Assembly: GCF_000429685.1 (NCBI RefSeq)
Contig: NZ_AUCI01000023.1
Span: 1 to 51,116, forward strand
Length of the DNA: 51,116 bases
DNA from: Salibacterium aidingense DSM 18341
Lineage (GTDB): Bacteria > Bacillota > Bacilli > Bacillales > Marinococcaceae
Direction: 5' to 3'
In this document: piece by piece, positions 11,920-50,772 of the stretch
How the letters are laid out: each line of letters opens with the position of its first letter
Numbering within the stretch: position 1 is the stretch's first letter
The notes under the pieces: model-generated
Database searches by the model: none
Seen by the model: only the letters and a program-made list of their open reading frames with translations
Told to the model about the DNA's origin: nothing
Program-made: the position numbers and the translations under genes

Positions 11920-13323
11920 TTAAAGGGTTCCCTTGCGGACATTTGTTCCGTTAAATGGCAGAATGTCGGGCCTGAAGCGCCTTTTTCGGACATTTGTTCC
12001 GCTATCCGGGCTCTGGGACGCTTCTTTTACGCTGTTTGGTTCTGCTGTAATTTTTACGTTGCTCTCCATATTAAAATCTCCGATATTACGTTTCGTATAG
12101 TTTGCCGAGCCGCCTATGAGTACATCTTTCTGGTGGTTTTCGATATATACCATCTTCGTATGAAACTGCTCTCCATCAGTGCGGTACCATTTCACCTCAA
12201 TGTCACCGTCTGACTCTATTATTAATTCATGAGCCACCGGGCGGTTGGGAATCCCATTTTTTTCCCTGCCAAACGCATCTTTATTAGAATCTAATACCAG
12301 CCGGACGTTCACTCCTCTTGAGGAAGCCTGGAGCAGCGCATCAATCACATCACGGTCCGAAAGGTAAAAAGCACCCAACGTAATGCTGCTGCCTGCTTCC
12401 GTTTTCTTTATCTCCTGAAGGGTATGTTTTTCAATTTTTCCTTCCGTCAGCAATTGAATATTATAGGGAGTTTCTTCCGGCGTTTCTGCCTGCACTTCCA
12501 TCGAAGAAAACAACGATGCTTCGGCACCGGCCCTTATCGCTGCCGCCTTTTCCGTCTGCAGCATATCATTCAGCACGCTTCCCTGGATTTCAAAACCTAT
12601 ATTCGAGTGATACGCACTGGCATCATGAGGGTTGGCCGAGGTGAGGAGGCCCCGCTCTTCCGTAATAACCGTTTTTCGATGATTTGCTTTGAAATTTAAT
12701 AGTTCCAGGTAGGACCGCAGTGTTACATCTGGAGCTCCCGCACTGAACGCATTCGGCAGCCATCCTTTCCCTTCCGTTCCGAACCATTGAAAAAAGGTTC
12801 GGTAAATCCCTGAGTACACCGGGTTCGAATCCCGTAACGGTTTCATATTCGTATAAAAGACCGGAATCCCATTCTCCTCCAGCCTTGTTAAAATATCAGT
12901 TTCATATGAGCCATAAAACGTATTAATCCGGTCCGTAAGGATAACAATATCAACCTCCGGATCTTTTTGCTTTTTATCAATAAGCGTCTGCGCCAGTTTT
13001 TCAGAGAGATTGGGAAAATCGAGAGATGGGTCGTACTGGCCATTAAATAAAAACATATCCAGCACCACAAATTCCTCTGCCTCCCCGATTATTTGAAATA
13101 CACGATCGAAAATCATCTGCTCCTGGTGCCGTTCCCCCTCTTCTTGATACGTCAGATCGTATAAAAAATCAATATCCTCTGTGTGATATACTTCTCCCTC
13201 CACGGAAACCCCTTCTGGAAGGGGCTTCACATAGTGATAAACCGACACCGCGCTCACGATGATAAAGATAGAAATGAAAACCGAGAAAAGAAGGATTCCT
13301 TGTTTTTTTCTTTTTCTTTTCAT
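11920..13323 (-). CDS. Phospholipase D-like membrane protein with repeat-derived C-terminus
   Basis: A 467-residue protein with an N-terminal membrane anchor (LLFSVFISIFIIVSAVSVYHY, residues 11-31) and two PLD half-sites: H215-R-K217 in NHRKTVITEE and H388-T-K390 in FHTKMVYIENH followed by GGSANYTKRN. Both half-sites have glutamate where the HxKxxxxD motif has aspartate, so activity is uncertain. Start 13323 was chosen for its GGAGG site. The last ~37 codons (11920-12033) coincide with a dispersed non-coding repeat, so the native C-terminus after about residue 430 has been replaced. Relatives usually continue with a helical tail. Substrate and role are unknown; it may be impaired. Confidence 0.8.
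   Translation of the reverse strand: MKRKRKKQGILLFSVFISIFIIVSAVSVYHYVKPLPEGVSVEGEVYHTEDIDFLYDLTYQEEGERHQEQMIFDRVFQIIGEAEEFVVLDMFLFNGQYDPSLDFPNLSEKLAQTLIDKKQKDPEVDIVILTDRINTFYGSYETDILTRLEENGIPVFYTNMKPLRDSNPVYSGIYRTFFQWFGTEGKGWLPNAFSAGAPDVTLRSYLELLNFKANHRKTVITEERGLLTSANPHDASAYHSNIGFEIQGSVLNDMLQTEKAAAIRAGAEASLFSSMEVQAETPEETPYNIQLLTEGKIEKHTLQEIKKTEAGSSITLGAFYLSDRDVIDALLQASSRGVNVRLVLDSNKDAFGREKNGIPNRPVAHELIIESDGDIEVKWYRTDGEQFHTKMVYIENHQKDVLIGGSANYTKRNIGDFNMESNVKITAEPNSVKEASQSPDSGTNVRKRRFRPDILPFNGTNVRKGTL
11930..12032 (+). repeat. Dispersed ~135-bp repeat, copy 1 (incomplete, fused to PLD gene)
   Basis: Starts CCTTGCGGACATTTGTTCCG and continues through a second GGACATTTGTTCCGCTATCCGG. It matches three other places in the window (23533, 32023, 50708). 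The right-hand third, with the inverted arm, is missing; the PLD reading frame takes over near 12033. The complementary strand is read as the end of that protein, including GTNVRK twice. Confidence 0.85.
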
Positions 13324-13429
13324 CTTTTCCCCCTCCATGCATCCTCTCTTCTTCATCATAAATGAAAAATAGGGGGAGATAGAACCTTTTCTTTCGTTTT
13401 TATGAAAAATAACCGTCTATTATAAAACG

Positions 13430-13462
13430 AAAAGAGAGCCAGCAGTCGGCCGGCTCTCTTTT
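13430..13462. terminator. Strong hairpin terminator
   Basis: AAAAGAGAGCC and GGCTCTCTTTT form an 11-bp perfect stem around an 11-base loop, T-rich on both strands. It lies between the small gene at 13619 (upstream on the minus strand) and the PLD gene start, so it most likely ends the small gene's transcript. Confidence 0.85.
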
Positions 13463-13618
13463 ATCTCTTGTTGTCTGGTCTGGGTTTTGATGCCCTTCTT
13501 TTCATTCGATTGGTGTATATACTTTTCACTGTTTATTCGCTATCACAATAGAAGGGATGTGTTAAGGGGAAGGGGGGACATGAATGTTTTGATTTAAACG
13601 TTTAATGACTACGGCCTC

Positions 13619-13816
13619 TCAAGAGTCTGCTGCATTGGGAGAGGGCTTCTCCGTCCATATATGATCTGCTCTTCGCCGAGGTCCTCGTTTATATTTACGC
13701 CGCTGCTGTAATTCTTCCATCCAGGCTTTTTCTTCTTCTTTGATTTTTCGTTCCCATCCATCTCTGGGCAGGTCATCTTTGATAACATACTTCTGCCACG
13801 CTATTTGATCGCTCAC
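13619..13816 (-). CDS. Small basic protein of unknown function
   Basis: Encodes 65 residues from a GTG at 13816 preceded by AAGGAGGAGC, a near-ideal ribosome site; the longer frame to 13861 has none. The protein starts VSDQIAWQKYVIKDD, has a highly charged helical middle (KIKEEEKAWMEELQQRRKYK) and a basic, proline-containing tail. I recognise no domain, signal or membrane segment. It appears monocistronic, with a strong terminator about 160 bases downstream. The good ribosome site and terminator argue that it is real rather than a chance frame. Confidence 0.6.
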   Translation of the reverse strand: MSDQIAWQKYVIKDDLPRDGWERKIKEEEKAWMEELQQRRKYKRGPRRRADHIWTEKPSPNAADS

Positions 13817-13861
13817 TTTAGCTCCTCCTTTCTCTACCTGTCCCAACAGTAAATGAACCAT

Positions 13862-14180
13862 GTTTCAAGTGTATGTCAATCAATTTTATCGTCAGTAATT
13901 AAGCCTGCCCTCCTATAAAGCAATACAAAAGACCTGCCCGCCGGGAAGTCATCCTTTCTTTTTAAAACAAGGCTGGTATAATAAGAAGTACAAGAAAAGG
14001 AAATCTTGAGTAAAATTACATAGCCGGCCGTTGTTTTACGGTCTTTTTTATTTGGCTGGGTGTTTAAAAATAATAAAACACCAAAAATATTAAAAAAAGT
14101 CTAATCAAAAATACACTTGGTATACTTTTCTGTTCGACCATTTGAATGGGTGATGATATCTTGGAAGAATGGGGGATTTT
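13862..14180. other. Intergenic region upstream of the orphan GbsR gene
   Basis: About 320 bases without a gene. A short hairpin followed by a T-run (GGCCGT/ACGGTC, near 14028-14053) could be a weak terminator on the plus strand, but no plus-strand gene precedes it closely. A TATACT hexamer at 14119 may be the -10 of the gbsR-type gene. Nothing else is evident. Confidence 0.4.
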
Positions 14181-14738
14181 ATGGAACAATTATCTGCTGA
14201 ATTAAAAATTAACCATGCCGAACAAGAAGTCATTAATGCTATTGCCGAAACGATGGATTTGTACGGGATCACCCCGTCAATTGGAAGACTGTACGCCGCC
14301 ATGTACTTTAAGCAGCATCCGATGACCCTAGATGAAATGTCAGATGAACTCGGCATGACAAAACCTAGTATGAGCACGGCGGTTCGTAATTTACAGGAGA
14401 TCCACATTGTCCGAAAAACATGGCAGAAAGGATCCAGGAAAGACCATTTTGTGGCTGAGAAAGATTTCTTCAATTATTTCGGGCGCTTTTTTGGAGATAA
14501 GTGGAAAAGGGAAGCTGAGTTAAACCTGTTTGCTATTAAACAAGCACAATATCAGCTTCAAGAAGTCATAGAAGAGGAAAATAATGAAGACCATCTAAGG
14601 GAAAGAGCCAGGCAGGACCTTGAACAATTAGAGGAGTATAAGAAATACTGTCACTGGCTACAAAAACTGGTACATTCTATTAACTCCGGTGAAATTTTTA
14701 ACTTTTTACCGGTGGAGGATTCCGATTCAAATACATGA
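14181..14738 (+). CDS. GbsR/OpcR-type transcriptional regulator (orphan)
   Basis: A 185-residue winged-helix protein of the GbsR family, which in B. subtilis senses choline or related solutes and represses glycine betaine synthesis and uptake genes. The HTH core MTLDEMSDELGMTKPSMSTAVRNLQE is at about residues 47-75, followed by the family-typical HFVAEKDFFNYFGRFFGDKWKREAE and a C-terminal helical part ending SGEIFNFLPVEDS. The start at 14181 follows a GGGGGAT sequence; an in-frame ATG at 14169 is an alternative. Unlike B. subtilis gbsR it has no gbsAB next to it. A second family member heads the carnitine operon at 50425. Confidence 0.82.
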   Translation: MEQLSAELKINHAEQEVINAIAETMDLYGITPSIGRLYAAMYFKQHPMTLDEMSDELGMTKPSMSTAVRNLQEIHIVRKTWQKGSRKDHFVAEKDFFNYFGRFFGDKWKREAELNLFAIKQAQYQLQEVIEEENNEDHLRERARQDLEQLEEYKKYCHWLQKLVHSINSGEIFNFLPVEDSDSNT

Positions 14739-15007
14739 TTATAAGGATGTCACCGAAGAAATAAACTGTCCCTCGGAAAGGATGCGGTTTACACCGGGCA
14801 AAGGCCTCCTCTCTTAAAGACTGCTCCATTCTTCCGCACGCATAAATTCTGAGAAGAGGGTCAAATCGGTTAGAACCATTATTTTTGGTCAAAAAATAAA
14901 GAACAGCCTCCCATTGACATGGAATCAAAAGGGAACCAATGATCCACTGCAAACCCTCTCGTTTGCAAAATGTTTGCAGTTTACCCACATCCTAAAATAG
15001 TCTGGAA
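14739..15007. other. Intergenic region between GbsR gene and tRNA promoter
   Basis: No convincing gene. Minus-strand frames here lack ribosome sites and recognisable content. A short inverted pair (GTTTGCA/TGCAAAC near 14950-14976) is visible. The tRNA promoter begins at 15008. Confidence 0.4.
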
Positions 15008-15036
15008 TTTACAAATCACAAAAGTACTGGTACAAT
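15008..15036 (+). promoter_or_regulatory. Promoter of tRNA-Arg
   Basis: TTTACA, a 17-base spacer, then TACAAT: close to the vegetative sigma-A consensus. It ends 17 bases before the first base of the mature tRNA, which fits a stable-RNA promoter. Confidence 0.85.
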
Positions 15037-15053
15037 AGCTTTTGTGAGTTTGA

Positions 15054-15128
15054 GCCCCAGTAGCTCAGGGGAAGAGCAACAGCCTCCTAAGCTGTAGGCC
15101 GCAGGTTCGAATCCTGCCTGGGGCGCCA
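15054..15128 (+). tRNA. tRNA-Arg, anticodon CCT
   Basis: The acceptor stem GCCCCAG pairs with CTGGGGC, followed by discriminator G and an encoded CCA. The anticodon arm CAGC-CTCCTAA-GCTG has a 7-base loop with T33, anticodon CCT and A37, decoding AGG. The T arm GCAGG-TTCGAAT-CCTGC is canonical. It appears to be a single-tRNA transcription unit. Confidence 0.95.
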
Positions 15129-15197
15129 ATTACAAAACCATTATTAAGACAAATACACGAGACTGGGACAAATCATATAAGTCAGGATAAAAATCCG

Positions 15198-15233
15198 AAC
15201 AATGCCGAATTCTAATTAGAATTCGGCATTGTT
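15198..15233. terminator. 36-bp perfect palindrome after the tRNA
   Basis: AACAATGCCGAATTCTAA is followed directly by its exact reverse complement. As RNA it would form a near-continuous hairpin with a very short loop, followed by GATTTTT on the plus strand, so it could terminate the tRNA transcript about 70 bases past the CCA end. Its perfect symmetry is unusual for a simple terminator. Confidence 0.7.
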
Positions 15234-15302
15234 GATTTTTCATCTGCATCTGCCTTCTTAAAACAACCAATGGGAACGGAGCACACCGCTGTATGATCGC
15301 TA

Positions 15303-15494
15303 GGCCGGCCACTGCGCTTTCCATAGGACGACTTCAGCTGACTTGGTAAAGAAAATTGTTTTACCAAGTGGAACTTCAGCTCGTCTTCGTCCCATAGGAG
15401 TCTCCGTGGCCGGATATATTGACAGTATCAACGCTGTCCTATGAAAACAGGCTGTCTGAAAGAGAGAACGGACTCTTTCGGACAGTCTTTTTTT
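15303..15494 (+). ncRNA. Candidate structured RNA or palindromic element with terminator
   Basis: A large imperfect hairpin spans 15305-15413: CCGGCCAC pairs with GTGGCCGG at the base. In the middle the two arms share TCCATAGGACGA/TCGTC..CCCATAGGA and CTTCAGCT, and ACTTGGTAAA/TTTACCAAGT closes the tip (15341-15369). It is followed by GACAG/CTGTC (15421-15438) and then a terminator hairpin (15451-15486, GCTGTCTGAAAGAG/CTCTTTCGGACAGT) with a T7 run. No reading frame explains this. It may be a small RNA gene or a miniature mobile element; no promoter is obvious, so the RNA call is tentative. Confidence 0.4.
15450..15494 (+). terminator. Rho-independent terminator
   Basis: GCTGTCTGAAAGAG pairs with CTCTTTCGGACAGT (one G-U pair), followed by a run of seven T. 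It is oriented on the plus strand, upstream of the YczE-type gene, so it ends whatever is transcribed from the tRNA side or from the structured stretch before it. Confidence 0.8.
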
Positions 15495-15681
15495 GTTTGG
15501 CAAGATTAAATTTTTTGACATTTCATTTTTCTCTTCCATGTTTTACATTTCTCATTTATAATGATTTTACGCTAAAAATCTTTATATGTTACGTTTATAC
15601 GGTTATATGTTTTATATACTAATTACAACTACTAGTATTTCATTATACCTTCCTATAACTAACGGAAAGGAGGCCGCAGCC

Positions 15682-16323
15682 ATGACTTTGACAAACGCTT
15701 ATAAATGCTTTTTTTATCTTACCGGAATTATTATTAATTTCTTAGGTGTTTCTTTAATTGTGAAATCCGGGATGGGAGCCGGTTTTTGGGCTGCCTTTTT
15801 TACAGGGCTGTCTGAGCAGCTCGGCTTCACCGTCGGCATGTGGTATGGATGTTTCCAGTTCATCTTTATCTTTGTAAATGGATACCTCTTATGCAGACGG
15901 CCGGAGTTTCTGGCCTTTATCCCGCTTGTATTGGAAACAGCGGTGTTTGATTTCTGGCTGGAGATCGTTTTTAAAAACTTTTATTTAACGGCAGCTCCTC
16001 TCTATATCCAGCTTCTTGTATTTGCGGCCGGGATTCTGTGTGTCAGTCTCGGAGTGGCTCTGTATATCCTGCCCGGCTTCCCCAGAGCACCAATTGACCA
16101 GTTATTCCTTGCTTTCAGTGAACGTTTTAACTGGAATATACGAACCTCTCAAACTCTGATTGCTGTACTGGTTGCGGCCACCGCCTTCGTCGTGGGAGGG
16201 CCCGTCGGCATTGGCACCGTCATTGTCGCGTTAACCATAGGCACATGCATCCAGTTCTGGTATGAAAAACTGACAGCACTGCATCAGCATTATACGAATC
16301 AGGATATGTTACACACTTCGTAA
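15682..16323 (+). CDS. YczE/YyaS/YitT-family integral membrane protein
   Basis: A 213-residue multi-pass membrane protein with about five hydrophobic segments. The N-terminus FFYLTGIIINFLGVSLIVKSGMGAGFWAAFFTGL and the later PGFPRAPIDQLFLAFSERFNWNIRTSQT match the YczE/YyaS membrane family as I know it. Members have no established biochemical activity; B. subtilis YczE lies near surfactin genes. The frame is open further upstream, but ATG 15682 has AAAGGAGG at ideal distance. It is alone and convergent with the rhamnose operon, ending at a shared terminator. Confidence 0.78.
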   Translation: MTLTNAYKCFFYLTGIIINFLGVSLIVKSGMGAGFWAAFFTGLSEQLGFTVGMWYGCFQFIFIFVNGYLLCRRPEFLAFIPLVLETAVFDFWLEIVFKNFYLTAAPLYIQLLVFAAGILCVSLGVALYILPGFPRAPIDQLFLAFSERFNWNIRTSQTLIAVLVAATAFVVGGPVGIGTVIVALTIGTCIQFWYEKLTALHQHYTNQDMLHTS

Positions 16324-16325
16324 TT

Positions 16326-16363
16326 AAAAAGGCTCCTTCCAGCTGGCGGAGGGAGCCTTTTTA
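16326..16363. terminator. Bidirectional terminator between YczE gene and rhamnose operon
   Basis: GGCTCCTTCC pairs with GGAGGGAGCC (one wobble), flanked by A-run and T-run, so it works on both strands. It ends the convergent membrane-protein gene and the deoR-type gene of the rhamnose operon. Confidence 0.9.
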
Positions 16364-16367
16364 TCAT

Positions 16368-17174
16368 TTAATGGTCATACAGCGTAATCACGTCGACCTC
16401 TTTCTCAGTCAGAAGGTATTTCTCTTCCTTGGCTAATTCATCGGTAATAAAAACATGAATGTTGTCCCATGTTGCGATTCGACTGAAAGACTGCACGTTA
16501 AATTTGGAGTGATCCGCTAATAAATGGACTTTGTCCCCTGCTTCGACCATTTTTTGTTTCACATGCGCCTGCAGCTCATTCGAGTCGCTTAACCCTTTCG
16601 CCCCGTGCACTCCCTGGCAGGAGAAAAACACTTTATCCACGTGATACATATGAATTCCGTATTCAGCAAGAGGGCCTACAAATGACAGCGACCTGGGGGA
16701 CAGAATGCCGCCCGTGGAAATTACTTGTATATTTTGCTTTTCACTTAGTTCCATCGATACTTTCATCGAATTCGTCAGTACAATAAGCGGAATATCAGGA
16801 AGTCCTTTTGCCATATACCATGCCGTCGAGCTTGCATCCAGAATAATACGGTCATTCTCCTCGATAAAATCCAGAGCTCTTTCCGCAATTTTGTTTTTTT
16901 CTTCTACATTAATGACTTCCCGCTCCGAATAAGGAGTTTCGGTTTTATCATTTTTAACGGACACTGCTCCGCCATGACTCCGTTTAATTTTCCGCTCCTT
17001 TTCCAGGTGATCCAGATCCCGGCGGATGGTTTCTTCTGTTACTCCGAACTGTTCGCTTAATTCCGTCACGCGGACACTGCCTTTTTCCTCCACCGTTTGA
17101 AGAATCCGTTCATACCTTTCTGCCACTAACACTCTTTTCCCTACTTTCCGTCTAGACGGTGAGATCTTCACCAT
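16368..17174 (-). CDS. rhaR: DeoR-family regulator of the rhamnose operon
   Basis: A 268-residue repressor. The N-terminal winged helix is at about residues 20-75 (ERYERILQTVEEKGSVRVTELSEQFGVTEETIRRDLDHLEKE). The C-terminal sugar-phosphate sensor domain has the DeoR signatures ILDASSTAWYMAKGLP and VISTGGILSPRSLSFVGPLA. The B. subtilis rhamnose operon is controlled by a DeoR-type protein (RhaR), and this is the last gene of the equivalent cluster. ATG 17174 has AGGAG and overlaps rhaB by 23 bases; a GTG at 17132 is an alternative start. The effector is probably rhamnulose-1-phosphate, by analogy. Confidence 0.85.
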   Translation of the reverse strand: MVKISPSRRKVGKRVLVAERYERILQTVEEKGSVRVTELSEQFGVTEETIRRDLDHLEKERKIKRSHGGAVSVKNDKTETPYSEREVINVEEKNKIAERALDFIEENDRIILDASSTAWYMAKGLPDIPLIVLTNSMKVSMELSEKQNIQVISTGGILSPRSLSFVGPLAEYGIHMYHVDKVFFSCQGVHGAKGLSDSNELQAHVKQKMVEAGDKVHLLADHSKFNVQSFSRIATWDNIHVFITDELAKEEKYLLTEKEVDVITLYDH

Positions 17175-18642
17175 TATTTACTCCTATCGTATCACAGAAC
17201 CTGCCATAAGCACGATGCCATTTCTTTTCGTCTTCCGGAAAATAATATTGCATATTCGTGCTTTTCAACGTAATCAATCGGGCCTGGGCCAGGTCTTCTA
17301 CTTTTCCAACTGCCATCAACTGCACCATCACGTTGCCAATGGCACTGCCTTCGACAGGACCGGCCCAGACTGGTTTTGCAAGAGCATTAGAGGTATACTG
17401 GCATAAAACAGTGTTTTTAATTCCCCCGCCGACCATATGCAGTCCATAAAAAGGAGTGCCGGCGAGATGCTGGGTCCGCTCAAACACATACCGGTATTTC
17501 AAAGCCAGACTTTCCAGCACCCCTTTTACGATTTCACCACGTGTACGAGGCACATATTGATCCGTATCTTCACAATACTGCTGGATTTCCTTTGGCATAT
17601 GAGGCGGATTCAAAAAACGAAAATCGTCTGGATCAATAAAAAAGGAAAAAGAGGGGGCTGCTTCTGCTTCCTGAAGAAGCTCTTTGTATCCTGCTTTTTC
17701 GTCGTGTTCCCATATACGTTTACATTCTTCTAAAATCCAAAGTCCCATAATATTTTTCAGAAGCCGGAACGTATTGTTGACGCCGCCTTCGTTCGTGAAA
17801 TTCCACTGGAATGCTTTATCATTAATGACTGCATCCTGAACTTCCGTCCCCATAAGAGACCACGTGCCACAGCTGACATAGGCAAAATCCTGATCCAGGG
17901 CGGGAATCCCTGCGACAGCCGATGCCGTATCATGTTCTCCGGCAGCAATCACGGGGATAGGATCCACATCCAGCTCTTCACAGACTTCCTTGCTCAGCTC
18001 TCCGATAATGGTTCCCGGCAGGGCAATATCCTGAAAAATATCTTTAGTCACTCCTGCCGCCTTCACAAGATCTTCGTCCCACTCCATTGTTTTGGGATTA
18101 AATAATTGGGTAGTCGTCGCATTAGTAAATTCTGTTTTTTTCTGTCCCGTCAGAAAATACCGCAGCAGATCGGGCATAAGAAGCAGATCGACAGCCTCAT
18201 TTAACAGCGGGGATCCTGTATTGCTCATGGCTTGTAATTGGTAGATAGTATTAAATGGAAGAAATTGAATACCCGTTTTATCAAAGATATCTTTTTTACT
18301 TACCTTGTTTTTATGGCAATCTTCCATCACCCCATCCGTATGATGATCCCGGTAATGATAAGGGGCTCGGAGCAGTTCGCCGTCTTTTCCAAGCAGCCCG
18401 AAGTCAACGGCCCATGTATCGATCGCAAGTGCTTCCAGCGCTTCTCCCGTTTTTTTTGCTTCTGCAATGCCCCGTTTTATCTCCAAAAACAACCGGTATA
18501 CATCCCAGTGTAATCGCTTTCCAATCTGTATAGGTGTATTATCAAAACGGTGGATTTCTTTCATTTCCAGGCGGTCATCTTTTACATCTGCCAACAGGGC
18601 GCGTCCGCTTCCTGCCCCAATGTCAAAAGCTAAGACACTCAC
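17152..18642 (-). CDS. rhaB: L-rhamnulokinase
   Basis: Phosphorylates L-rhamnulose to L-rhamnulose-1-phosphate using ATP. At 496 residues it has the FGGY-kinase layout: the first phosphate loop FDIGAGSGRALLADV at residues 6-20, the substrate region IDTWAVDFGLLGKDG near 95, and the second nucleotide site ISCGTWSLMGTEVQ-like stretch (YVSCGTWSLMGTE) near 258. GTG start at 18642 overlaps the rhaI stop by four bases (GTGA), a sign of coupled translation. It sits between the isomerase and the regulator genes. Confidence 0.95.
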   Translation of the reverse strand: MSVLAFDIGAGSGRALLADVKDDRLEMKEIHRFDNTPIQIGKRLHWDVYRLFLEIKRGIAEAKKTGEALEALAIDTWAVDFGLLGKDGELLRAPYHYRDHHTDGVMEDCHKNKVSKKDIFDKTGIQFLPFNTIYQLQAMSNTGSPLLNEAVDLLLMPDLLRYFLTGQKKTEFTNATTTQLFNPKTMEWDEDLVKAAGVTKDIFQDIALPGTIIGELSKEVCEELDVDPIPVIAAGEHDTASAVAGIPALDQDFAYVSCGTWSLMGTEVQDAVINDKAFQWNFTNEGGVNNTFRLLKNIMGLWILEECKRIWEHDEKAGYKELLQEAEAAPSFSFFIDPDDFRFLNPPHMPKEIQQYCEDTDQYVPRTRGEIVKGVLESLALKYRYVFERTQHLAGTPFYGLHMVGGGIKNTVLCQYTSNALAKPVWAGPVEGSAIGNVMVQLMAVGKVEDLAQARLITLKSTNMQYYFPEDEKKWHRAYGRFCDTIGVNNGEDLTV

Positions 18643-19862: not shown

Positions 19863-19884
19863 CGTTTCACAGCCTTTCTATTAT

Positions 19885-20262: not shown

Positions 20263-20274
20263 CGTTTCTTCCTC

Positions 20275-23532: not shown

Positions 23533-23668
23533 CCCTTGCGGCCATTTGTTCTGTTAAATCGTGCAATGAGGGGCCTGCGGCTGCTTTTTCGGACATTGGT
23601 TCCGCTATCCGGGCTTTGGAGCGTTTCTTTTACGCGGAAAAGGAGAAATAGAGGAACAAATGTCCGGC
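23533..23668 (+). repeat. Dispersed ~135-bp repeat, copy 2 (full length)
   Basis: Runs from CCCTTGCGGCCATTTGTTCTG to GGAACAAATGTCCGG. The right end is the inverted form of the left-end and internal GGACATTTGTTCC blocks, so the right two thirds can fold into a hairpin of about 19 bp. It occupies the space between two convergent genes and ends 18 bases before the yesN-type stop codon. Same orientation as the other copies. Confidence 0.85.
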
Positions 23669-23686
23669 CCCATCTTTAAAAAGGCT

Positions 23687-32022: not shown

Positions 32023-32157
32023 CCTTGCGGACATCTGTTCCGTTAAATGGCTGAACAAGCGGTCTGAAGCGGCTTTTTGGGACATTTATTCCGCTATTCG
32101 GGGCCTGGAGTGCTTTTTTTATGCTAAAAAGAGAAAATAACGGTATAAATGTCCTCC
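32023..32157 (+). repeat. Dispersed ~135-bp repeat, copy 3 (full length)
   Basis: Begins CCTTGCGGACATCTGTTCCG and ends GTATAAATGTCCTCCCG. The internal block is GGACATTTATTCC and the right arm ATAAATGTCC, so the G-to-A change relative to other copies is matched by the opposite arm. It begins 17 bases after the SGNH stop codon, again between convergent genes. Confidence 0.85.
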
Positions 32158-36883: not shown

Positions 36884-36919
36884 ATCCCTTTTTATTTTCT
36901 CTCCACTCCGTTTCCTTTT

Positions 36920-38922: not shown

Positions 38923-38936
38923 TTTAAGTCCACCTC

Positions 38937-40522: not shown

Positions 40523-40544
40523 ATATTATAAAGGAAGTGAAGAA

Positions 40545-41144: not shown

Positions 41145-41206
41145 CCCTCTTCGAACCACTACAGACACATATGATATAAAACATTAGAAATGAGGAAAAG
41201 TTAATT

Positions 41207-42142: not shown

Positions 42143-42266
42143 TAAATGATCAATTCAAATTTATGTAACTAGAAGTGCTAGATTCATTTTGGAATACGAG
42201 TGACAAACTTGACTCTACTTCAAAAAACTAATTTCAAATAAATGAATAAGGGAGTTGTATCTGACC

Positions 42267-42902: not shown

Positions 42903-42931
42903 ACAAGTTGTTGAATTTATAATAAATATTG

Positions 42932-43079
42932 GGGCTGTATCAAGTTATTTTTAATAATTTCAGCCCCCACTTTAATGGATAAAATCACATCAAAACAAAT
43001 AATCCCGTACCACTTTTGAAGTGATACGGGATTATTTTTGGGATTCAGTCAACTGCTTACTACCTTTTGATACAGCTCC
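42932..43079. mobile_element. 148-bp element with terminal inverted repeats (element A)
   Basis: Left end GGGGCTGTATCAAG and right end CTTTTGATACAGCTCC are inverted repeats of each other. No transposase inside; it carries a strong hairpin terminator. The same ends bound a 404-bp element at 44060-44463. Looks like a miniature inverted-repeat element; no obvious target duplication seen. Confidence 0.6.
42998..43040. terminator. Strong terminator inside element A
   Basis: AATAATCCCGTA..CACTT pairs with AAGTG.TACGGGATTATT (one mismatch) around a 3-base loop, followed by TTTTT on the plus strand. It ends transcription from the unknown membrane protein gene and, in reverse, from the AraC-type gene. 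Confidence 0.85.
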
Positions 43080-43106
43080 AAAGAAGAAGTAGTTTTCGTT
43101 AGATCT

Positions 43107-43925: not shown

Positions 43926-44059
43926 GATACGACCTCCACATACCTTCGTACACACTGTCGTTTCTTGTATTATACTACAGTCTGTAAAGGTTTGGATACA
44001 TACTGCCAGGTGTGCAAAAGTGTTCTTCTAATGTGTTTAAAATCTTCATCTTAAAAAGG

Positions 44060-44463
44060 GGGGCTGTATCAAAAGTCCATTTAAATTGGCAGGGGCTTTC
44101 GTAAGTACATGGGCATCCGCTGCAGGCGGACGCTTTCACTCCAGAGCACAAGGGCGACATCGGCTCCCTGCGGATCGCCGTGTCTTCTTTGCCGCCGGGC
44201 AGCGCCTCAGCTACATCCCTGAAGGAAGATCGGCTAAGTTCGGCACGTCCTGTGCCAACGCCGATCTGACTCCCATCGTGGGAGCCTTCGTTTGATGGGA
44301 TCTTCGGCTGCTGCTTGAAAAGGAAACAGGCTAAAACCGCCACATCGTGTGGCAACGCCTGCATGACCAACATCCTGTTGGCCCGGAGTCGCCGCCTTCC
44401 GCTCCCGCCCAAAGTGGTTTTTCTTGAACATAGAAAAGGAACTGTACCTTTTGATACCGCTCC
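44060..44463. mobile_element. 404-bp structured element with terminal inverted repeats (element B)
   Basis: Bounded by GGGGCTGTATCAAAAG on the left and CTTTTGATACCGCTCC on the right, the same termini as element A. No convincing reading frame. GC-rich inside, with a series of small hairpins: GGCACGTCCTGTGCC (44242-44256) nested in GATCGGC/GCCGATC (44228-44266), CTCCCATCGTGGGAG (44270-44284), CCACATCGTGTGG (44340-44352) and CCAACATCCTGTTGG (44367-44381). It lies 20 bases beyond the last gene of the carnitine operon. Either a non-autonomous mobile element or a structured RNA cassette. Confidence 0.6.
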
Positions 44464-44483
44464 TCTGATGTTTCTATACGTCG

Positions 44484-45416: not shown

Positions 45417-45435
45417 TTCTCTCCTTTTCATAGAA

Positions 45436-46266
45436 TTAAAGTTTGTCTCCAATGCCCTGGGTAATACGGTCGATGATAATAGCCAATACGACAATGCCAA
45501 GACCTCCGGTTAATCCTAAGCCCACGTTTACATTGGATATTCCGGACAATACTGTCGATCCGAGTCCTGGCGCTCCGATCATCGAAGCTATAACAGCCAT
45601 CGACAGCGCCAGCATAATCGTCTGGTTTACTCCTGCCATAATTGTCTGCAGCGACATGGGCAGTTCTACTTTTAATAGCATCTGCCAGGAAGTGGAACCA
45701 AAAGCTTTGGAGGCCTCCGCAATATCCTCCGGCACCTGGCGTATCCCAAGATTCGTCATTCGGACTGCCGGCGGCGTGGCAAATATAAACGTAGCAATGA
45801 CGGCTGGTACGCCTCCGAGCCCAAAAAGTAAAATCGCTGGTATAAGGTAAACGAAACTTGGAAGGGTCTGCATAAAATCCAGTACCGGCCTGATGAAACG
45901 GTTGACCATATCACTTTTAGCAGCGAGTATCCCAAGAGGCACTCCAAAAAATACAGAAAGAAAGGTAGCAACAATAACAATAGCTACGGTCATCATAGCT
46001 TCTGGCCATAATTCGACTGCTCCTAGATAGAGACAGCCCACCAGGGTAAAGAGCGCAATGCCTTTTCCGGCCAGCCATAACGCTAATCCAATTAATACAA
46101 TCGTAATAAGCAGCGGGGGAAGAAAAATAAGAAAATCTGTAATCCCATCTACCACCGATTCTATACCGTCACTTAAACTATTAAAAAATCCGCCTACAGT
46201 GGGAAGAAGCCAGTCATTTACAAACGAATTGGTCCATTCCTCTAATGGGAGATAGAATGTCTTCAT
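45436..46266 (-). CDS. Glycine betaine/carnitine ABC permease (OpuAB-like)
   Basis: A 276-residue permease with an amphipathic N-terminal part (EWTNSFVNDWLLPTVGGFFNSL) and about six membrane segments. The coupling loop is IRQVPEDIAEASKAFGSTSWQMLLKVELP near residue 175, typical of the OpuAB/ProW family. It overlaps the ATPase gene by four bases and is followed 19 bases later by the binding protein. Moves compatible solute across the cytoplasmic membrane. Confidence 0.92.
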   Translation of the reverse strand: MKTFYLPLEEWTNSFVNDWLLPTVGGFFNSLSDGIESVVDGITDFLIFLPPLLITIVLIGLALWLAGKGIALFTLVGCLYLGAVELWPEAMMTVAIVIVATFLSVFFGVPLGILAAKSDMVNRFIRPVLDFMQTLPSFVYLIPAILLFGLGGVPAVIATFIFATPPAVRMTNLGIRQVPEDIAEASKAFGSTSWQMLLKVELPMSLQTIMAGVNQTIMLALSMAVIASMIGAPGLGSTVLSGISNVNVGLGLTGGLGIVVLAIIIDRITQGIGDKL

Positions 46267-47456
46267 GATGTCACCTCCTCCTCTTTGCCAAGTACAAGAC
46301 CTGATAGAATGGAAACCCGTGATACAATGCCCGTCAGTTTTCCATCTTGTAATACGGTAATCGGGTATTTCGTATCCACCGCATTCGCAATCAAGTCCTG
46401 AATTGGAGTGTCAGGGGTAGTCGTATGAAAATCAGAAATTAGTACACTTTCCATAGGAAGGCCTTGTTTGTGAGCACCAATTGCATCATCAATGGTTAAT
46501 AATCCTTTCAAATGGCGTTCCCGGTCTACCACAAAAATACTGGACACCCCTGCTTCTTCCATTTTTCGAACAGCCACCCGCGGTCCATCTTTTTCTGATG
46601 CCAGAACCGAGGGGTTTTTCATAATATGAGAGGCGGTAAGCACTTTCGAACGGTCCACGTCTTCTACGAATCTTGACACATAATCATTTGCCGGAGACTC
46701 CAGAATTTGTTCTGCCGTTCCCACCTGAACGATAGCTCCATCTTTCATAATAGCTATCCGGTCTCCCAGTTTTAAGGCTTCGTCCAAGTCGTGGGTAATA
46801 AAGACGACCGTTTTGTTCCATTTGTTTTGCAGCTGCAGCAGCTCATCCTGCATTTCCTGGCGGATCAGCGGGTCCAGTGCGCTAAAGGCTTCATCCATCA
46901 GCAGAATATCAGTTTCATTGGCAAGGGCCCGGGCCAGTCCCACTCTTTGCTGCATTCCGCCGCTCAATTGCTCTGGATAGCTCTTTTCATATCCTTTCAG
47001 GCCGACATCTTCGATTGCCTTGGCGGCTTTTTCTTCCCGTTCGGATTTTTCTATACCTTGAATCTCGAGCCCATAGGCCACATTAGCAAGAACCGTACGG
47101 AAGGGGAATAAGCCAAACCGTTGAAAAACCATCCCAAGTTTTTGCCGTCTGGTTTCTATTAACTGCTGATTCGCAGCCTTCGTAATATCTTCGTTATCAA
47201 TCCATACTTGTCCAAATGTGGGATCAATCAACCGATTCAGCAGCCGGATCAAGGTAGACTTTCCACTTCCGGAAAGGCCCATGATCACAAAGATTTCTCC
47301 TTCCTCTACGGAGAAGGAAGCCTGATTCACTCCTACGGTCATTCCTGATTCTGCTAATATTTCATCTTTTGTTTTACCTTGTTTTAAATATTCCATTCCC
47401 TTTTCCGGCGAAGGCCCAAAAATCTTAGTCAGTTCCTGCACGTTGATTTTACTCAT
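46263..47456 (-). CDS. Glycine betaine/carnitine ABC ATPase (OpuAA-like) with CBS pair
   Basis: ATP-binding subunit of about 397 residues. Walker A is GLSGSGKST (60-68), the signature LSGGMQQRVGLARALA is near 165, and Walker B ILLMDEAFSALDP near 185. Residues ~275-395 form two CBS domains (HIMKNPSVLASEKDGPRVAV; ISDFHTTTPDTPIQDLIANAV), which in OpuA-type transporters sense ionic strength or cyclic-di-AMP. The N-terminal KIFGPSPEKGMEYLKQGKTKDEI is typical of the family. Start 47456 fits the AGGAG spacing better than 47462. It follows the thioesterase by 27 bases. Confidence 0.92.
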   Translation of the reverse strand: MSKINVQELTKIFGPSPEKGMEYLKQGKTKDEILAESGMTVGVNQASFSVEEGEIFVIMGLSGSGKSTLIRLLNRLIDPTFGQVWIDNEDITKAANQQLIETRRQKLGMVFQRFGLFPFRTVLANVAYGLEIQGIEKSEREEKAAKAIEDVGLKGYEKSYPEQLSGGMQQRVGLARALANETDILLMDEAFSALDPLIRQEMQDELLQLQNKWNKTVVFITHDLDEALKLGDRIAIMKDGAIVQVGTAEQILESPANDYVSRFVEDVDRSKVLTASHIMKNPSVLASEKDGPRVAVRKMEEAGVSSIFVVDRERHLKGLLTIDDAIGAHKQGLPMESVLISDFHTTTPDTPIQDLIANAVDTKYPITVLQDGKLTGIVSRVSILSGLVLGKEEEVTS

Positions 47457-47483
47457 GAACATTCTCCTTTGAATGTTTGCTTT

Positions 47484-47957
47484 TTATTTCTTGTTTATTC
47501 CTATTTTCCGACCTGCCCGCGCTGGGGTTTCTGCTTCTTGGTGATGAGCAGCGATTTCTTCCAGGTTACTTCGAATATCAGCTGGAAATGCATCGGGCCG
47601 GCCTGTCTCTGTGTTGATACCCATCAGCATTTGTTCACTTACTGCCAATTCTTCCTCCGTACTGCCGGTCATGACGAAATACACATGCATTCGTTTTGCA
47701 TCATGGTCAAGCAGTTGATACGTTACACGGATGTCTTCTCCTTCTTTTGCTTCCATCAGATAAGAGAGGTGGGTTTCTAACGTATAAATCGTATAGGCAT
47801 GGGCTTCGCGGCCTTTTTTATCCAGTCCGATAACCTGCATCAGTTCATCCACTGCCAGGCTGAATACAGCGGCATAAGCTGCATCATTCATGTGACCGTT
47901 GTAGTCTACCCATTCCGAGCGAACCTTTTCGTTTAAAAGAAGTTTGTTACCCATCAT
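47484..47957 (-). CDS. Hotdog-fold thioesterase, probable betainyl-CoA thioesterase
   Basis: A 157-residue hotdog thioesterase of the 4HBT type. The catalytic region is WVDYNGHMNDAAY with D18 and the following N-G-H-M-N, near the N-terminus, and the core beta strands follow (YTIYTLETHLSYLMEAKEGEDIRVTYQLLDHDAKRMHVYFVM). In carnitine gene clusters such a protein hydrolyses betainyl-CoA to glycine betaine and CoA. It overlaps the dehydrogenase gene by 11 bases; AAAGGAG precedes the ATG. Function is inferred from the cluster. Confidence 0.85.
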   Translation of the reverse strand: MMGNKLLLNEKVRSEWVDYNGHMNDAAYAAVFSLAVDELMQVIGLDKKGREAHAYTIYTLETHLSYLMEAKEGEDIRVTYQLLDHDAKRMHVYFVMTGSTEEELAVSEQMLMGINTETGRPDAFPADIRSNLEEIAAHHQEAETPARAGRKIGINKK

Positions 47958-48942
47958 GACTGGACTCCTTTGTTTTGTTATGCATGATCGTCTGAGGTTC
48001 CGGCCAGTATTCTTCTACTAAGTCCAGCAGCTTCACGAGAAACTCATTACGCTGTTTTTCAAGCTCCGCTACGCTCTGATTACCGGCCCCTTTTTCACTT
48101 CCTTCAATGACTTGTTCTTTCAGCTCTTCTGTCAGTTCCGGCGCTTCCAGTTTCGTCCATGGAAGCTTTAATGCCGGTCCGAACTGATGAAGCATATGCC
48201 GCATTCCCTGGTCACCGCCGGCAAGATGAAATGTCATAAACGGTCCCATCTGAGCCCAGCGCAACCCGGCGCCATACGTTATCGCTGCATCGACTTCCTC
48301 TGTTGTCGCAATGCCGTCGTTTACAATATGAAGGGCCTCCCGCCACAACGCTTCCATGAGACGGTCGGCGACATGGCCTTCTACTTCTTTCTCGATGACG
48401 AGCGGTTTCATATCGACTTGTTTATAAATATCCTCTGCTTTATCCATTGTTTTCTGAACGGTAGAAGTACCGCCTACCAGCTCTACCAAAGGAAGCAGAT
48501 ATACTGGGTGAAACGGGTGGGCTACAATCACCCGTTCCGGATGATTGCAATCCTGCTGCAGGGTGGAGGGGGTGATCCCTGATGTACTGGAAGCAATAAC
48601 TGCCTCCAGCGGAGCATGTTCATCAATATCAGAGAGAACCTTTCTTTTGATGTCCTCTCTCTCCGGGACGTTTTCCTGTACCAATGCAGCGTCTTTCACA
48701 GCATCTTCTATATTGTTTTTAAATGTCAGCCGGTCCATCGAAGCCCCTTCTGCCAGTCCCCGCTGTTCCATATACGGCCAAGCCTGCTCTACTCCTTTTC
48801 TCATCCGCTCTTCTGCACCTTCTGCCATGTCGGTTGCAACGACATCGCACCCGCCTGCTAAAAACCGTGTAATCCAGCCGACTCCGATAACTCCCGTTCC
48901 AACAATCGCCACCGTCGGCTGTTTCTGTTGACTTTCTCTCAT
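47947..48942 (-). CDS. lcdH: L-carnitine dehydrogenase
   Basis: Oxidises L-carnitine to 3-dehydrocarnitine with NAD+. It belongs to the 3-hydroxyacyl-CoA dehydrogenase family, 331 residues. The NAD fold starts VAIVGTGVIGVGWITRFLAGG (residues 11-31); the catalytic histidine is in VAHPFHPVYLLPLVELVGG near 141-146; the C-terminal domain carries GAGLRWAQMGPFMTFHLAGGDQGMRH, a stretch characteristic of carnitine dehydrogenases. GGAGGAGAG precedes the ATG. Flanked by the cleavage enzyme and the thioesterase, which fit the following two steps. Confidence 0.88.
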   Translation of the reverse strand: MRESQQKQPTVAIVGTGVIGVGWITRFLAGGCDVVATDMAEGAEERMRKGVEQAWPYMEQRGLAEGASMDRLTFKNNIEDAVKDAALVQENVPEREDIKRKVLSDIDEHAPLEAVIASSTSGITPSTLQQDCNHPERVIVAHPFHPVYLLPLVELVGGTSTVQKTMDKAEDIYKQVDMKPLVIEKEVEGHVADRLMEALWREALHIVNDGIATTEEVDAAITYGAGLRWAQMGPFMTFHLAGGDQGMRHMLHQFGPALKLPWTKLEAPELTEELKEQVIEGSEKGAGNQSVAELEKQRNEFLVKLLDLVEEYWPEPQTIMHNKTKESSHDG

Positions 48943-48984
48943 GATTTCTCTCCTCCTATGGGGTGACGAATTTTTTATTCGTTC

Positions 48985-49863
48985 CTATCTCTTTTTTAAC
49001 TGCAGTTTTTCTCTGGCAGCCTGCGGTGACATGACCTCGCCGCCCAGATTTTGAATAATGTCCACTGCTTTGTCTGTCAACTGTTCGTTTGTAGCAAGGA
49101 CTCCTTTTTTCAAATATAAGTTATCCTCCAGCCCTACGCGGGCATTACCGCCCTGCAGAACTGATTCTGCCACGATCGGCATCTGCTGTGCCCCGATGCC
49201 AAATGCGGCCCAGCTGCTGTTATCGGGAATACGGCTTTTCATGTAGGCTATTGTTTCGGCATCGGCTGCTGCTCCCCACGGAATACCCAGACAAAACTGG
49301 AACAGCATATCATCGTCTACGAGTCCCTCGTTGTTTAGCTGGTTTGCCATGCGGATCTGACCCGTATCAAAACATTCAAGTTCCGGTTTCACCCCGCTTT
49401 GCTGAATCAATGCTGCATGTTCCCGCAGCCAGCTTCCTGGATTGATATATACCTGATCGCCGAAATTAATACTGCCGCAGTCGAGTGTGCAAATTTCCGG
49501 CAGCAGTTCTTCGACCGGCTCATGCCTTTCCTGCGGTATCTGAATATCTGTGCCGGCACCGCCTTTAGCTGGGTCGTCAGTGCTTGGCACCCAATCTCCG
49601 CCGCCGCCGGCTGTTATATTAATGATGACATCCGTATCGGCTTCTCTAATTCTTTCCACCGCTTCTTTAAACAGCTCCACATCATGGCTGAGTTTTCCTG
49701 TCTTTGGATCTCTTACATGAAGATGGACAATGGTGGCTCCGGCTTTTGCAGCTTTTATGGATGAATCCGCAATTTCTTTGGGTGTTACCGGTACATCCGG
49801 GTTTTTCTCTGTCGTTTCCCCTGCTCCTGTTACAGCGCAGGAAAGAATCGGATTTTTATTCAT
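48985..49863 (-). CDS. Beta-keto acid cleavage enzyme, probable 3-dehydrocarnitine cleavage
   Basis: A 292-residue TIM-barrel protein of the BKACE (3-keto-5-aminohexanoate cleavage, DUF849) family. The zinc-binding H47-L-H49 lies in IVHLHVRDPKTG, with ITAGGGGDW near 83 and ARVGLEDNLYLKKG (conserved Glu) near 240. The family condenses a beta-keto acid with acetyl-CoA to give acetoacetate and a CoA thioester; with dehydrocarnitine the products are acetoacetate and betainyl-CoA. The substrate is inferred from the adjacent carnitine dehydrogenase. It overlaps the regulator gene by eight bases. Confidence 0.88.
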   Translation of the reverse strand: MNKNPILSCAVTGAGETTEKNPDVPVTPKEIADSSIKAAKAGATIVHLHVRDPKTGKLSHDVELFKEAVERIREADTDVIINITAGGGGDWVPSTDDPAKGGAGTDIQIPQERHEPVEELLPEICTLDCGSINFGDQVYINPGSWLREHAALIQQSGVKPELECFDTGQIRMANQLNNEGLVDDDMLFQFCLGIPWGAAADAETIAYMKSRIPDNSSWAAFGIGAQQMPIVAESVLQGGNARVGLEDNLYLKKGVLATNEQLTDKAVDIIQNLGGEVMSPQAAREKLQLKKR

Positions 49864-50425
49864 CAGAATGAGTCCCTCCTCTTATGCTTCGGTTTTTTGG
49901 TACATGTTCAAACACTTCTCCGCTTTCAAAAAACTGAATCAAACGGAAAATCCAGTCGTAGTATTCCATCCATTCATAAATTTCATGAAGAAGTTCATTT
50001 ATTTGTTCCTCTTCTTCTTCTGTCAGTCTTTCTGTCTGTAGCAGCTTTTCCAGTCTGTTCTTTAATTTCTGCTCAAAATGTCTGCTTTTGTTTATGGCCT
50101 GCCGCCAATTTGACGTAAACAGGGAAATAAAGGTCTGATAATAATCCTGCTCGACCTGATAATAATCCTTCCGCCCCCCGAGTTGAAACGTCCGTTCGGC
50201 AATGTTCAATTCCATCATTTCACGGACGACCTGACTCATTCTTGTCTTGCTCATGCCTGTTTGTTCTGACAGCTCATCCAATGTCATGGGGGCACGGTTC
50301 ATATAAATAATGCCCAATACCCTGCCGACCGTAGTGGAAGTTCCAAACGAACGCATGTTATCAGCAAGTTTTTCAATAATCTGGTTATGTGCTTGCTCCA
50401 CTTCATGAAACACTTTATCGTCCAT
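49856..50425 (-). CDS. GbsR/OpcR-type regulator of the carnitine-betaine operon
   Basis: A 189-residue winged-helix protein. The HTH is MTLDELSEQTGMSKTRMSQVVREMMELNIAERTFQLGGRKDYYQVEQDYYQTFISLF (about 52-108), followed by helical, glutamate-rich sequence (ERLTEEEEEQINELLHEIYEWMEYYDWIFRLIQFFESGEVFEHVP) that ends like GbsR. AGAGGAGG precedes the ATG. It is the first gene of the seven-gene operon and so likely autoregulates it, sensing carnitine, choline or betaine. Homologous to the orphan at 14181. Confidence 0.88.
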   Translation of the reverse strand: MDDKVFHEVEQAHNQIIEKLADNMRSFGTSTTVGRVLGIIYMNRAPMTLDELSEQTGMSKTRMSQVVREMMELNIAERTFQLGGRKDYYQVEQDYYQTFISLFTSNWRQAINKSRHFEQKLKNRLEKLLQTERLTEEEEEQINELLHEIYEWMEYYDWIFRLIQFFESGEVFEHVPKNRSIRGGTHSDE

Positions 50426-50707
50426 GGAGACCTCCTCTGAATGACTTATGTTTGCACTTTATCACACATCGTTTTTACTACAAACGTTCAGATGACTAAG
50501 TATAAATAAGTAAAGAAAAGATATAAGCAGATACAAACTTATGAATTTTATAAATAAAAAAGTTTACATAAATATCGTCAATATTGTACATTTTATAAAT
50601 TTATAAGTTTATAGTTTACATTTATTGTTAAATTAGGATGTAACATACCCTGGTCAGGGGGGTACTTTCACTATGTTGCGGTTATCAGCGAATGGGATAT
50701 GAGGATG
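50426..50707. promoter_or_regulatory. Promoter region of the carnitine-betaine operon
   Basis: Very AT-rich. A perfect 14-bp palindrome TTATAAATTTATAA lies at 50593-50606, surrounded by related ATAAGT/ACTTAT words, so it is a candidate operator for the GbsR-type protein. No single best promoter pair stands out in this composition. Confidence 0.4.
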
Positions 50708-50772
50708 GCTTGAGGACATTTATTCCGTTAAATGGCCGAATAATCGGCCTTCGTGAACTTTTCCGGACATTT
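50708..50772 (+). repeat. Dispersed ~135-bp repeat, copy 4 (cut by an IS)
   Basis: GCTTGAGGACATTTATTCCG through TTCCGGACATTT matches the left half of the other copies and then stops in the middle of the internal GGACATTTGTTCC block. The sequence that follows is the end of an IS3-family element, so the repeat seems to have been the insertion target. Confidence 0.75.

What the first reader, a model, noticed from the sequence alone, without database searches (positions are those of the whole stretch)
11930..50772. A dispersed ~135-bp palindromic repeat, four copies in one window, all in the same orientation
Copies at 11930-12032, 23533-23668, 32023-32157 and 50708-50772 share CCTTGCGGACATTTGTTCCGTTAAAT-like starts and an internal GGACATTTGTTCCGCTAT block; full-length copies end in the inverted form GGAACAAATGTCC. 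The right part can fold into a hairpin of about 19 bp. In copy 3 the internal block has ATTTAT where copies 1 and 2 have T-G at that site, and the right arm carries ATAAAT, a compensatory change that hints at selection for structure. Three copies sit between convergent genes, 17-18 bases from stop codons in two cases, so they may act as bidirectional terminators, mRNA-end stabilisers or miniature mobile elements.
Basis: seen in the sequence. Interest (0 to 1): 0.8.

Follow-up and report, generated by a model that had tools for sequence, protein, structure and literature searches.

The report
Nuclease-linked four-box DNA repeats in Bacillaceae
Some Bacillaceae genomes carry up to hundreds of copies of a short DNA element made of four precisely spaced binding-site-like boxes, and the same four-box layout, with different letters, usually sits right behind the gene for an uncharacterised nuclease-like, DNA-binding protein, which suggests an unrecognised repeat-plus-nuclease system resembling, but not related to, the known REP/RAYT system.

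Summary
The repeat is real and larger than described. Intact copies are 177 bp: four 17-bp boxes (GGACATNTRTTCCGYTA) in order > > < <, starting at 0, 51, 109 and 160. The window holds only damaged copies; 70 box loci were mapped in the genome, 42 with four boxes. Other Bacillaceae genera keep the layout with unrelated spacers. The proposed RNA-fold reading fails: no covariation, and one B2:B3 pair is unpaired in 22 of 28 copies. Instead, boxes and spacing are conserved copy by copy between two related species while spacers drift; copies lie behind genes, rarely between divergent ones. A motif-free scan found the layout near 28 of 30 homologues of a ~218-aa protein (DUF559/REase-like plus winged-helix-like), in 21 of 30 starting 4-44 nt after the stop codon, with box letters differing between species. 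In 249 genomes, element and gene go together (19 of 22 versus 8 of 227); all eight genomes with 20 or more half-elements have an intact gene. Best reading: a nuclease-linked repeat system analogous to REP/RAYT but unrelated to it. Binding, cutting and spreading are inferred, not shown.

The parts
11930..12032 (+). Copy 1: left half only (boxes 11937-11953 and 11988-12004); right half lost, joined to the 3' end of ORF 11920-13359(-)
23534..23668 (+). Copy 2: boxes 23540-23556 (2 mismatches), 23591-23607 (1), reverse box 23649-23665 (1); fourth box lost
32023..32157 (+). Copy 3: boxes 32029-32045, 32080-32096, reverse box 32138-32154 followed by the flank normally seen after box 4 (51 bp between boxes 3 and 4 apparently deleted)
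50708..50772 (+). Copy 4: box 50714-50730 and half of a second box 50765-50772, interrupted by an insertion sequence
50773..51116 (.). Insertion-sequence end (TGGATCTATGTCAAG...; first base uncertain by one or two) running to the contig end; the same end sits inside boxes on contigs C8 and C9

Best explanation
The repeat is the DNA half of a two-part system whose protein half is a ~218-aa protein with a restriction-endonuclease-like (DUF559-type) N-terminal domain and a winged-helix-like C-terminal domain. SHOWN here: (a) a four-box array 51/58/51 (each step within 1-2 bp) stands near 28 of 30 sampled copies of this gene, in 21 directly behind its stop codon, with box letters that differ between species; (b) the sampled genomes with many dispersed arrays have an intact gene; (c) boxes and spacing are conserved copy by copy while spacers are not; (d) the boxes do not covary as RNA stems. 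INFERRED: the C-terminal domain binds the box; four subunits occupy the four boxes as a dyad-symmetric complex on bent DNA (51 bp is about five helical turns; the spacers of three genomes carry A- and T-tracts at fixed positions); the nuclease domain cuts DNA and thereby lets arrays, with or without the gene, be copied into intergenic spots behind genes, as RAYT is thought to do for REPs. The dispersed copies are non-autonomous passengers. They stay bound or otherwise useful afterwards, which would explain why their boxes are still under purifying selection.
For: Geometry: of 42 own four-box copies 30 are exactly 51/58/51 and 11 within 1 bp at every step; in the stricter scan, which admits only +-1, exact in 30 of 41 own, 58 of 63 R. 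marisflavi, 22 of 36 G033, 19 of 42 G143; same layout with unrelated spacers in Aquibacillus, Bacillus suaedae, Pontibacillus, and 50/58/50 in Pseudalkalibacillus. Gene link: motif-free scan score >=62 in 28 of 30 gene loci, against 0 or 1 of 30 for six wrong outer spacings and 0 of 90 mononucleotide shuffles (locus L255 suggested the idea, so 27 of 29 are independent); array within 50 nt after the stop codon in 21 of 30 loci, within 200 nt on either side in 26; own genome: array starts 7 nt after the stop. Co-occurrence in 249 genomes: 19 of 22 with the close form of the gene (18 intact, 4 remnants) against 8 of 227 others (13 of which have only the distant form), p 2e-19; intact genes only, 15 of 18 against 12 of 231; all 8 genomes with >=20 half-elements have an intact gene. 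Cognate boxes: over seven genomes, dispersed copies resemble the gene-adjacent boxes of their own genome, 3 of 5040 permutations as good. Distant homologue in Paenibacillus cellulosilyticus flanked by 51-bp-period arrays. In-place selection between G033 and G143, 13 element pairs: fixed box positions 24/728 changed, spacers 170/1411, flanks 613/3807; gap columns 0, 5 and 94. Invariant residues fit a nuclease: D74, E87, H94, R109; DUF559 hit E 9e-4 for the second clade.
Against: No target-site duplication or exact empty site could be read: in six orthologous regions of congener G020 one has an array, five have none, but intergenic DNA is too diverged to place the junction. In 120 kb of G033/G143 nearly all arrays are shared, so no recent movement is seen. 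In-place selection is not expected of dead passenger copies and fits a host function as well. Eight genomes have a few arrays (1-16 half-elements) without the close form of the gene, and three with an intact gene lack the generic pattern, although all three have an array at the gene in other letters (L265, L269, L273). In the cognate-box test the own column is the best in only 2 of 7 rows, second in 4, third in 1, and some genomes share their box; five of the seven rest on 29 of 62 listed half-elements that I picked. The DUF559 match is just below its cutoff and only for the second clade; a profile search of solved structures gave only weak matches outside the nuclease domain; the structure model is useless, pLDDT 34. 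Genome counts are not phylogenetically independent.
Confidence: 0.6

Rival explanations
1. Host-serving chromosomal element: the linked protein is a domesticated DNA-binding factor (nuclease domain silent or rarely used) and each array is an architectural or insulating site at gene 3' ends, for example a roadblock between convergent genes.
For: In-place conservation of boxes and spacing, strong bias to 3' ends and against divergent gaps, A/T-tracts at fixed places in the spacers of three genomes, stability over 120 kb in two species.
Against: Patchy: congeners often have few or no arrays; tandem arrays, one with the gene inside; catalytic-type residues remain invariant; no loss of intrinsic terminators at these ends shown.
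Confidence: 0.22
2. Ordinary MITE-like element moved by a conventional insertion-sequence transposase, next to this gene only by accident.
For: Defined borders about 6 bp outside the outer boxes, inverted boxes at both ends, dispersed intergenic copies, presence/absence in a congener.
Against: No transposase with such ends was seen in the loci read; the insertion sequences found are guests that interrupt the element; 28 of 30 gene loci carry the array although the box letters differ.
Confidence: 0.07
3. RNA element: bidirectional terminator or mRNA-end stabiliser acting through the stem.
For: Boxes are inverted, so long stems can form, 89.8% of cells paired; copies lie behind genes.
Against: No covariation beyond shuffles on four of five measures nor between B2 and B3 at the variable positions; pair 66:112 fails in 22 of 28; exact spacing and box divergence in other species have no place in it.
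Confidence: 0.05
4. Defence or addiction system: the nuclease is kept harmless by sequestration on chromosomal arrays and attacks DNA lacking them.
For: Nuclease-like protein, patchy distribution, selection to keep boxes.
Against: No defence-model match of weight (best E 0.0014, to the HTH part); one or a few arrays suffice in many genomes.
Confidence: 0.06

Closest known systems
REP / BIME repeats with RAYT (TnpA-REP) proteins
   Same: Many dispersed intergenic palindromic repeats; a dedicated gene associated with the repeats (PMC3733652, three passages read); insertion sequences use the repeats as targets (PMC1525189, abstract read). Recalled, not from a call: location mostly behind genes, tandem arrays, patchy between relatives, repeat letters differing with the protein.
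   Different: The protein is DUF559/REase-like plus winged helix, not an IS200/IS605-type protein; the repeat is a 177-bp array of four 17-bp boxes with fixed 51/58/51 spacing, not a 20-40 bp palindrome with a GTAG or CGTC tag.
Bacterial MITEs, for example bcr1 of the Bacillus cereus group
   Same: Short non-coding dispersed element with inverted ends, intergenic (PMC3733652 passage).
   Different: Internal boxes repeat the terminal ones at exact spacing; no transposase with matching ends seen; no target duplication seen; linked to a nuclease-like gene.
Stem-loop repeat families Bhal-1 and Bhal-2 of Bacillus halodurans
   Same: Dispersed intergenic repeats of a Bacillaceae genome (36 and 50 copies; PMC2267715, six passages read).
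   Different: 74 and 76 bp long, one with CRISPR repeats; their sequences were not seen, so no comparison was made.
DUF559 / Vsr-like endonuclease-fold proteins
   Same: Weak DUF559 and MTES_1575 matches of the second clade, conserved D...E-x-Q/D...H pattern.
   Different: Carries a winged-helix-like end and stands beside a four-box array; no such pairing found in the searches made.

Membership tests
REP/RAYT | Associated protein is an IS200/IS605-type (Y1, HUH) transposase | tested here: not met
   No Y1 transposase among Pfam matches at E up to 1 for four members; DUF559/REase and HTH matches instead
REP/RAYT | 20-40 bp palindrome with GTAG or CGTC tag | tested here: not met
   177-bp array of four 17-bp boxes with no such tag in the consensus; definition from the title, abstract start and passages of PMC3733652
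REP/RAYT | Repeats beside the cognate gene and dispersed in the same genome | tested here: met
MITE | Terminal inverted repeats shared with an autonomous transposon | tested here: inconclusive
   Inverted end boxes present; no transposon with such ends seen in the loci read; the genome could not be held as a file
MITE | Target-site duplication on insertion | tested here: inconclusive
   Flank profile shows borders but cannot show duplications; empty sites too diverged
Structured RNA / terminator | Compensatory changes in the stem | tested here: not met
   (one of five measures above most shuffles)
Structured RNA / terminator | Match to a known RNA family | tested here: not met
   Rfam scan of the window at gathering scores gave three hits, none at the copies
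PD-(D/E)XK (DUF559-like) nuclease | Family profile match above curated cutoff | tested here: not met
   Second clade: DUF559 19.6 bits, cutoff 20.6; first clade none
PD-(D/E)XK (DUF559-like) nuclease | Invariant catalytic-type residues | tested here: met
   D74, E87, H94, R109 invariant in 27 sequences, position 89 Q or D; catalytic role is my inference
PD-(D/E)XK (DUF559-like) nuclease | DNA cleavage | not testable with these tools
   needs biochemistry

The most novel reading that the evidence does not exclude
A previously unrecognised class of repeat-nuclease system in Bacillaceae and Paenibacillaceae: a REase-like winged-helix protein co-evolves with arrays of boxes at 51-bp period, the box letters being rewired from lineage to lineage while the geometry stays fixed; in some species the array has spread to up to about two hundred sites, mostly behind genes, where it is held by purifying selection. 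This would be a convergent counterpart of REP/RAYT built from unrelated parts.
Probability: 0.55. Interest if true: 0.88.

Novelty: categorically new. Interest (0 to 1): 0.82.

Why it matters
The origin and upkeep of dispersed palindromic repeats is a long-standing question, studied (as far as I recall) mainly through REP/RAYT. A second, unrelated nuclease-repeat pair that has arrived at similar habits (gene-end location, tandem arrays, insertion-sequence target, patchy bursts) would show which features are general. It makes predictions that can be tested in harmless soil and marine bacilli: the protein binds its own box, 51-bp spacing is needed, box letters follow the protein. Proteins of one family that read many different 17-bp boxes at fixed geometry would also be of interest as DNA-recognition models.

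Tried and rejected
RNA stem (B1:B4, B2:B3): rejected. Conventional transposon ends: the insertion sequences near copies are guests. Replichore orientation and a terminus gap in G143/G254, suggested by the listings: dropped, because comparison showed that the listing for G254 is incomplete by position and strand. A first box-versus-spacer comparison from listed halves (fixed positions 4/728, spacer 72/884, 26 pairs) was biased by the mismatch limit and by my choice of rows (47 halves of G033 and 28 of G143 out of 100 listed each); the syntenic comparison replaces it. One search was given 15 of the 16 G033 clusters (the sixteenth is a single box), left out 2 of the 15 for missing boxes and contains one pair with an insertion sequence; without that pair the figures, by subtraction, are 15/672 and 158/1302. 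Controls (reversed sequence) and two of eight (51/67/51, 51/49/51) are invalid, since they keep the same boxes. The score limit of 62 was chosen after seeing the scores; the two loci below it score 53 (broken gene, L274) and 60 (L275). ORF-based gene context is approximate: 11 own and 4 R. marisflavi copies overlapped ORFs (about 80-214 codons where listed, mostly probably spurious) and were left out, as were 10 at locus edges; tandem copies and G033/G143 orthologues are counted apart; background gaps include those with elements. The RNA test includes one copy whose first box is partly insertion sequence (L015). Terminator comparison: inconclusive. Structure prediction without alignment failed (pLDDT 34), so no fold search was run. 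No match in viral contigs (exact pattern), phages or plasmids (blastn of copy 3, E up to 0.1) for the element, or in viral contigs and phages for the protein. Literature: nine searches of the held library listed no paper on this element or its link to the protein; subscription papers are mostly not held.
Full report
1. What is in the window. The four copies are at the stated places. The exact 14-mer GGACATTTGTTCCG occurs 46 times in the 4.42-Mb genome and its reversed control 0 times. The intact unit is four 17-bp boxes GGACATTTRTTCCGYTA, two forward and two reverse, starting at 0, 51, 109 and 160. In the own genome I mapped 70 loci, 42 with four boxes; 30 are exactly 51/58/51, 11 within one base at every step, and one has 50 in the middle. 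Two boxes 51 apart with up to 3 mismatches occur 92 times, control 0. Single boxes with up to 2 mismatches occur 251 times, control 4. The window itself holds only damaged copies.

2. The layout is shared by other genera. An exact two-box pattern found 51 stretches in named genomes: 44 of Rossellomorea marisflavi, 3 of Aquibacillus koreensis, 2 of Pontibacillus marinus, one each of Bacillus suaedae and Pseudalkalibacillus caeni. Outside R. marisflavi the full order > 51 > 58 < 51 < is seen in L061 (twice), L067, L076 and L086, as 50/58/50 in L074, and three boxes of it in L063 and L088; spacers are unrelated between genera. R. marisflavi also has tandem arrays of whole units. In a class-wide sample of 299 genomes, two from another family match a looser pattern and keep 51/58/51 (one locus 51/59/51) with other box letters. 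In a sample of 249 genomes of the order 8 match the original box at 2 mismatches or fewer, with 1 to 189 half-elements, and congeners often have none.

3. It is not an RNA stem. In 28 full own copies the pairing B1:B4 plus B2:B3 has 89.8% standard pairs against 90.2% when partners are shuffled, covariation 0.056 against 0.062; pair 66:112 fails in 22 of 28. One of the five measures, further pair types, exceeds most shuffles (18 against 15.1; 9 of 500 as high). Pairing exceeds slid versions because all boxes are alike. In four genomes (41, 63, 36 and 42 copies) the variable box positions 7, 9 and 15 do not match between B2 and B3 more than by chance at any position; for B1:B4 one of twelve tests reached p 0.009.

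4. It is under selection as spaced DNA boxes. Genomes G033 and G143 are 84-97% identical in syntenic blocks. In a 120-kb stretch nearly all arrays are at the same places (16 and 18 box clusters). In 13 aligned pairs, fixed box positions changed at 24 of 728, variable box positions at 14 of 156, spacers at 170 of 1411, flanks at 613 of 3807; G033 positions with a gap in G143 were 0, 5 and 94 in boxes, spacers and flanks. So copies keep boxes and spacing where they stand. Outer spacers in R. marisflavi, G033 and G143 share T, A-tract and T-tract positions, the own genome less clearly; that this means bent DNA is an inference.

5. Where it lies. By approximate ORF of 98 copies lie between convergent, 47 between co-directional and 2 between divergent ORFs, background 87, 227 and 103. 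The median distance to a gene 3' end is 34-57 nt in three genomes and 273 nt in R. marisflavi. Whether copies replace terminators is open.

6. Insertion sequences hit it. Of 14 contig ends near elements that I read, 12 have an insertion-sequence end inside an element; one has it about 130 nt outside, one leads to what looks like rRNA (recognised by eye). Two kinds cut the box at nearly the same place; two kinds lie in outer spacers. One of the first pair encodes an HTH_Tnp_1 protein and one of the second a Transposase_mut protein. In G143 a Transposase_mut element sits in an outer spacer too. REPs are known targets of insertion sequences (PMC1525189, abstract read).

7. The linked gene. One R. 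marisflavi cluster of four arrays encloses a 218-aa ORF. Homologues occur in 35 of 249 genomes of the order, including 7 of the 8 that matched the original box, one of them with a broken gene. In the own genome the gene is on contig C5 and an array begins 7 nt after its stop codon. Asking only for four similar 17-mers at 51/58/51 (+-1), without any motif, gave a hit in 28 of 30 gene loci; six wrong outer spacings gave 0 or 1 of 30, 90 shuffles none. The box letters differ widely, for example GGACTGAGATTCCGTTA, GGATCCTGGTTCCGCTA, CGGAGAAATTCCGCTTA. In 21 of 30 loci an array begins within 50 nt after the stop codon, in 5 loci arrays stand on both sides. With a generic box pattern, 19 of 22 genomes with the close form of the gene (18 intact, 4 remnants) and 8 of the other 227 have arrays; all 8 genomes with at least 20 half-elements have an intact gene. 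Dispersed copies resemble the gene-adjacent boxes of their own genome (3 of 5040 permutations as good), but the own column is best in only 2 of 7 rows. A distant homologue in Paenibacillus cellulosilyticus (28% and 41% identity to two queries) stands between box arrays of 51-bp period, one of 13.6 units starting at its stop codon.

8. The protein. 27 sequences share 34 invariant columns, among them E60, E62, D65, R71, D74, E87, G90, H94, D105, R109. The more distant clade matches DUF559 (E 9e-4, just below cutoff) and a penicillinase-repressor-type winged helix; the first clade has only weak matches, mostly HTH. That D74, E87 and Q/D89 are a PD-(D/E)XK site is my reading from knowledge of the fold. 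No usable structure model was obtained.

9. Movement. Of 64 own loci (of 70), six had both flanks in 800 kb of congener G020: one has an array there with the same boxes and spacing but different spacers, five have none; in one of these the own array stands just behind a terminator-like hairpin, and G020 has such a hairpin without the array. The gene is broken in G020. Direction (gain or loss) and junctions cannot be read.

10. Judgement. Shown: geometry, selection, gene-end bias, gene linkage, co-occurrence. Inferred: binding, cutting, copying. By habits it works like REP/RAYT; by parts it is not a member, as two defining features of that family are not met. I know of no description, and nine searches of the held library listed none; that library lacks most subscription journals, and two B. 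halodurans repeat families (PMC2267715) were not compared by sequence.

Noticed in passing
window 44218-44284 and 44316-44381: Two Bacillaceae-1 RNA (RF01690) matches in tandem, above the gathering score.
   Followed up: no
window 11920-13359 (-): The last 37 or so residues of a PLD-domain ORF are encoded by the damaged copy 1; the box reads as GTNVRK twice.
   Followed up: partly
window 50773-51116; own contigs C7, C8, C9, C23, C28: Two insertion-sequence kinds interrupt boxes at nearly the same position (around GGAACAAA|TGTCC, uncertain by one to three bases); two others lie in outer spacers.
   Followed up: partly
L252:12441-13613 (G143): Transposase_mut-family insertion sequence in an outer spacer, with 8 bp of flanking sequence repeated.
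   Followed up: yes
L270, L272 and G033:C3:397584-398219: G033 and G143 each have two copies of the gene; one lies beside boxes of a different type from most dispersed copies, and in G033 the other lies 69 nt or so before boxes of the dispersed type.
   Followed up: partly
L305:4443-4580: 17 perfect copies of CCCCTAAA on a Paenibacillus cellulosilyticus plasmid, near the 51-bp array.
   Followed up: no
G397 (L185, L187): Class-level relative with a nearly palindromic box GGAAATTTTTTCCGTTA at 51/58/51; presence of the gene there was not tested.
   Followed up: no
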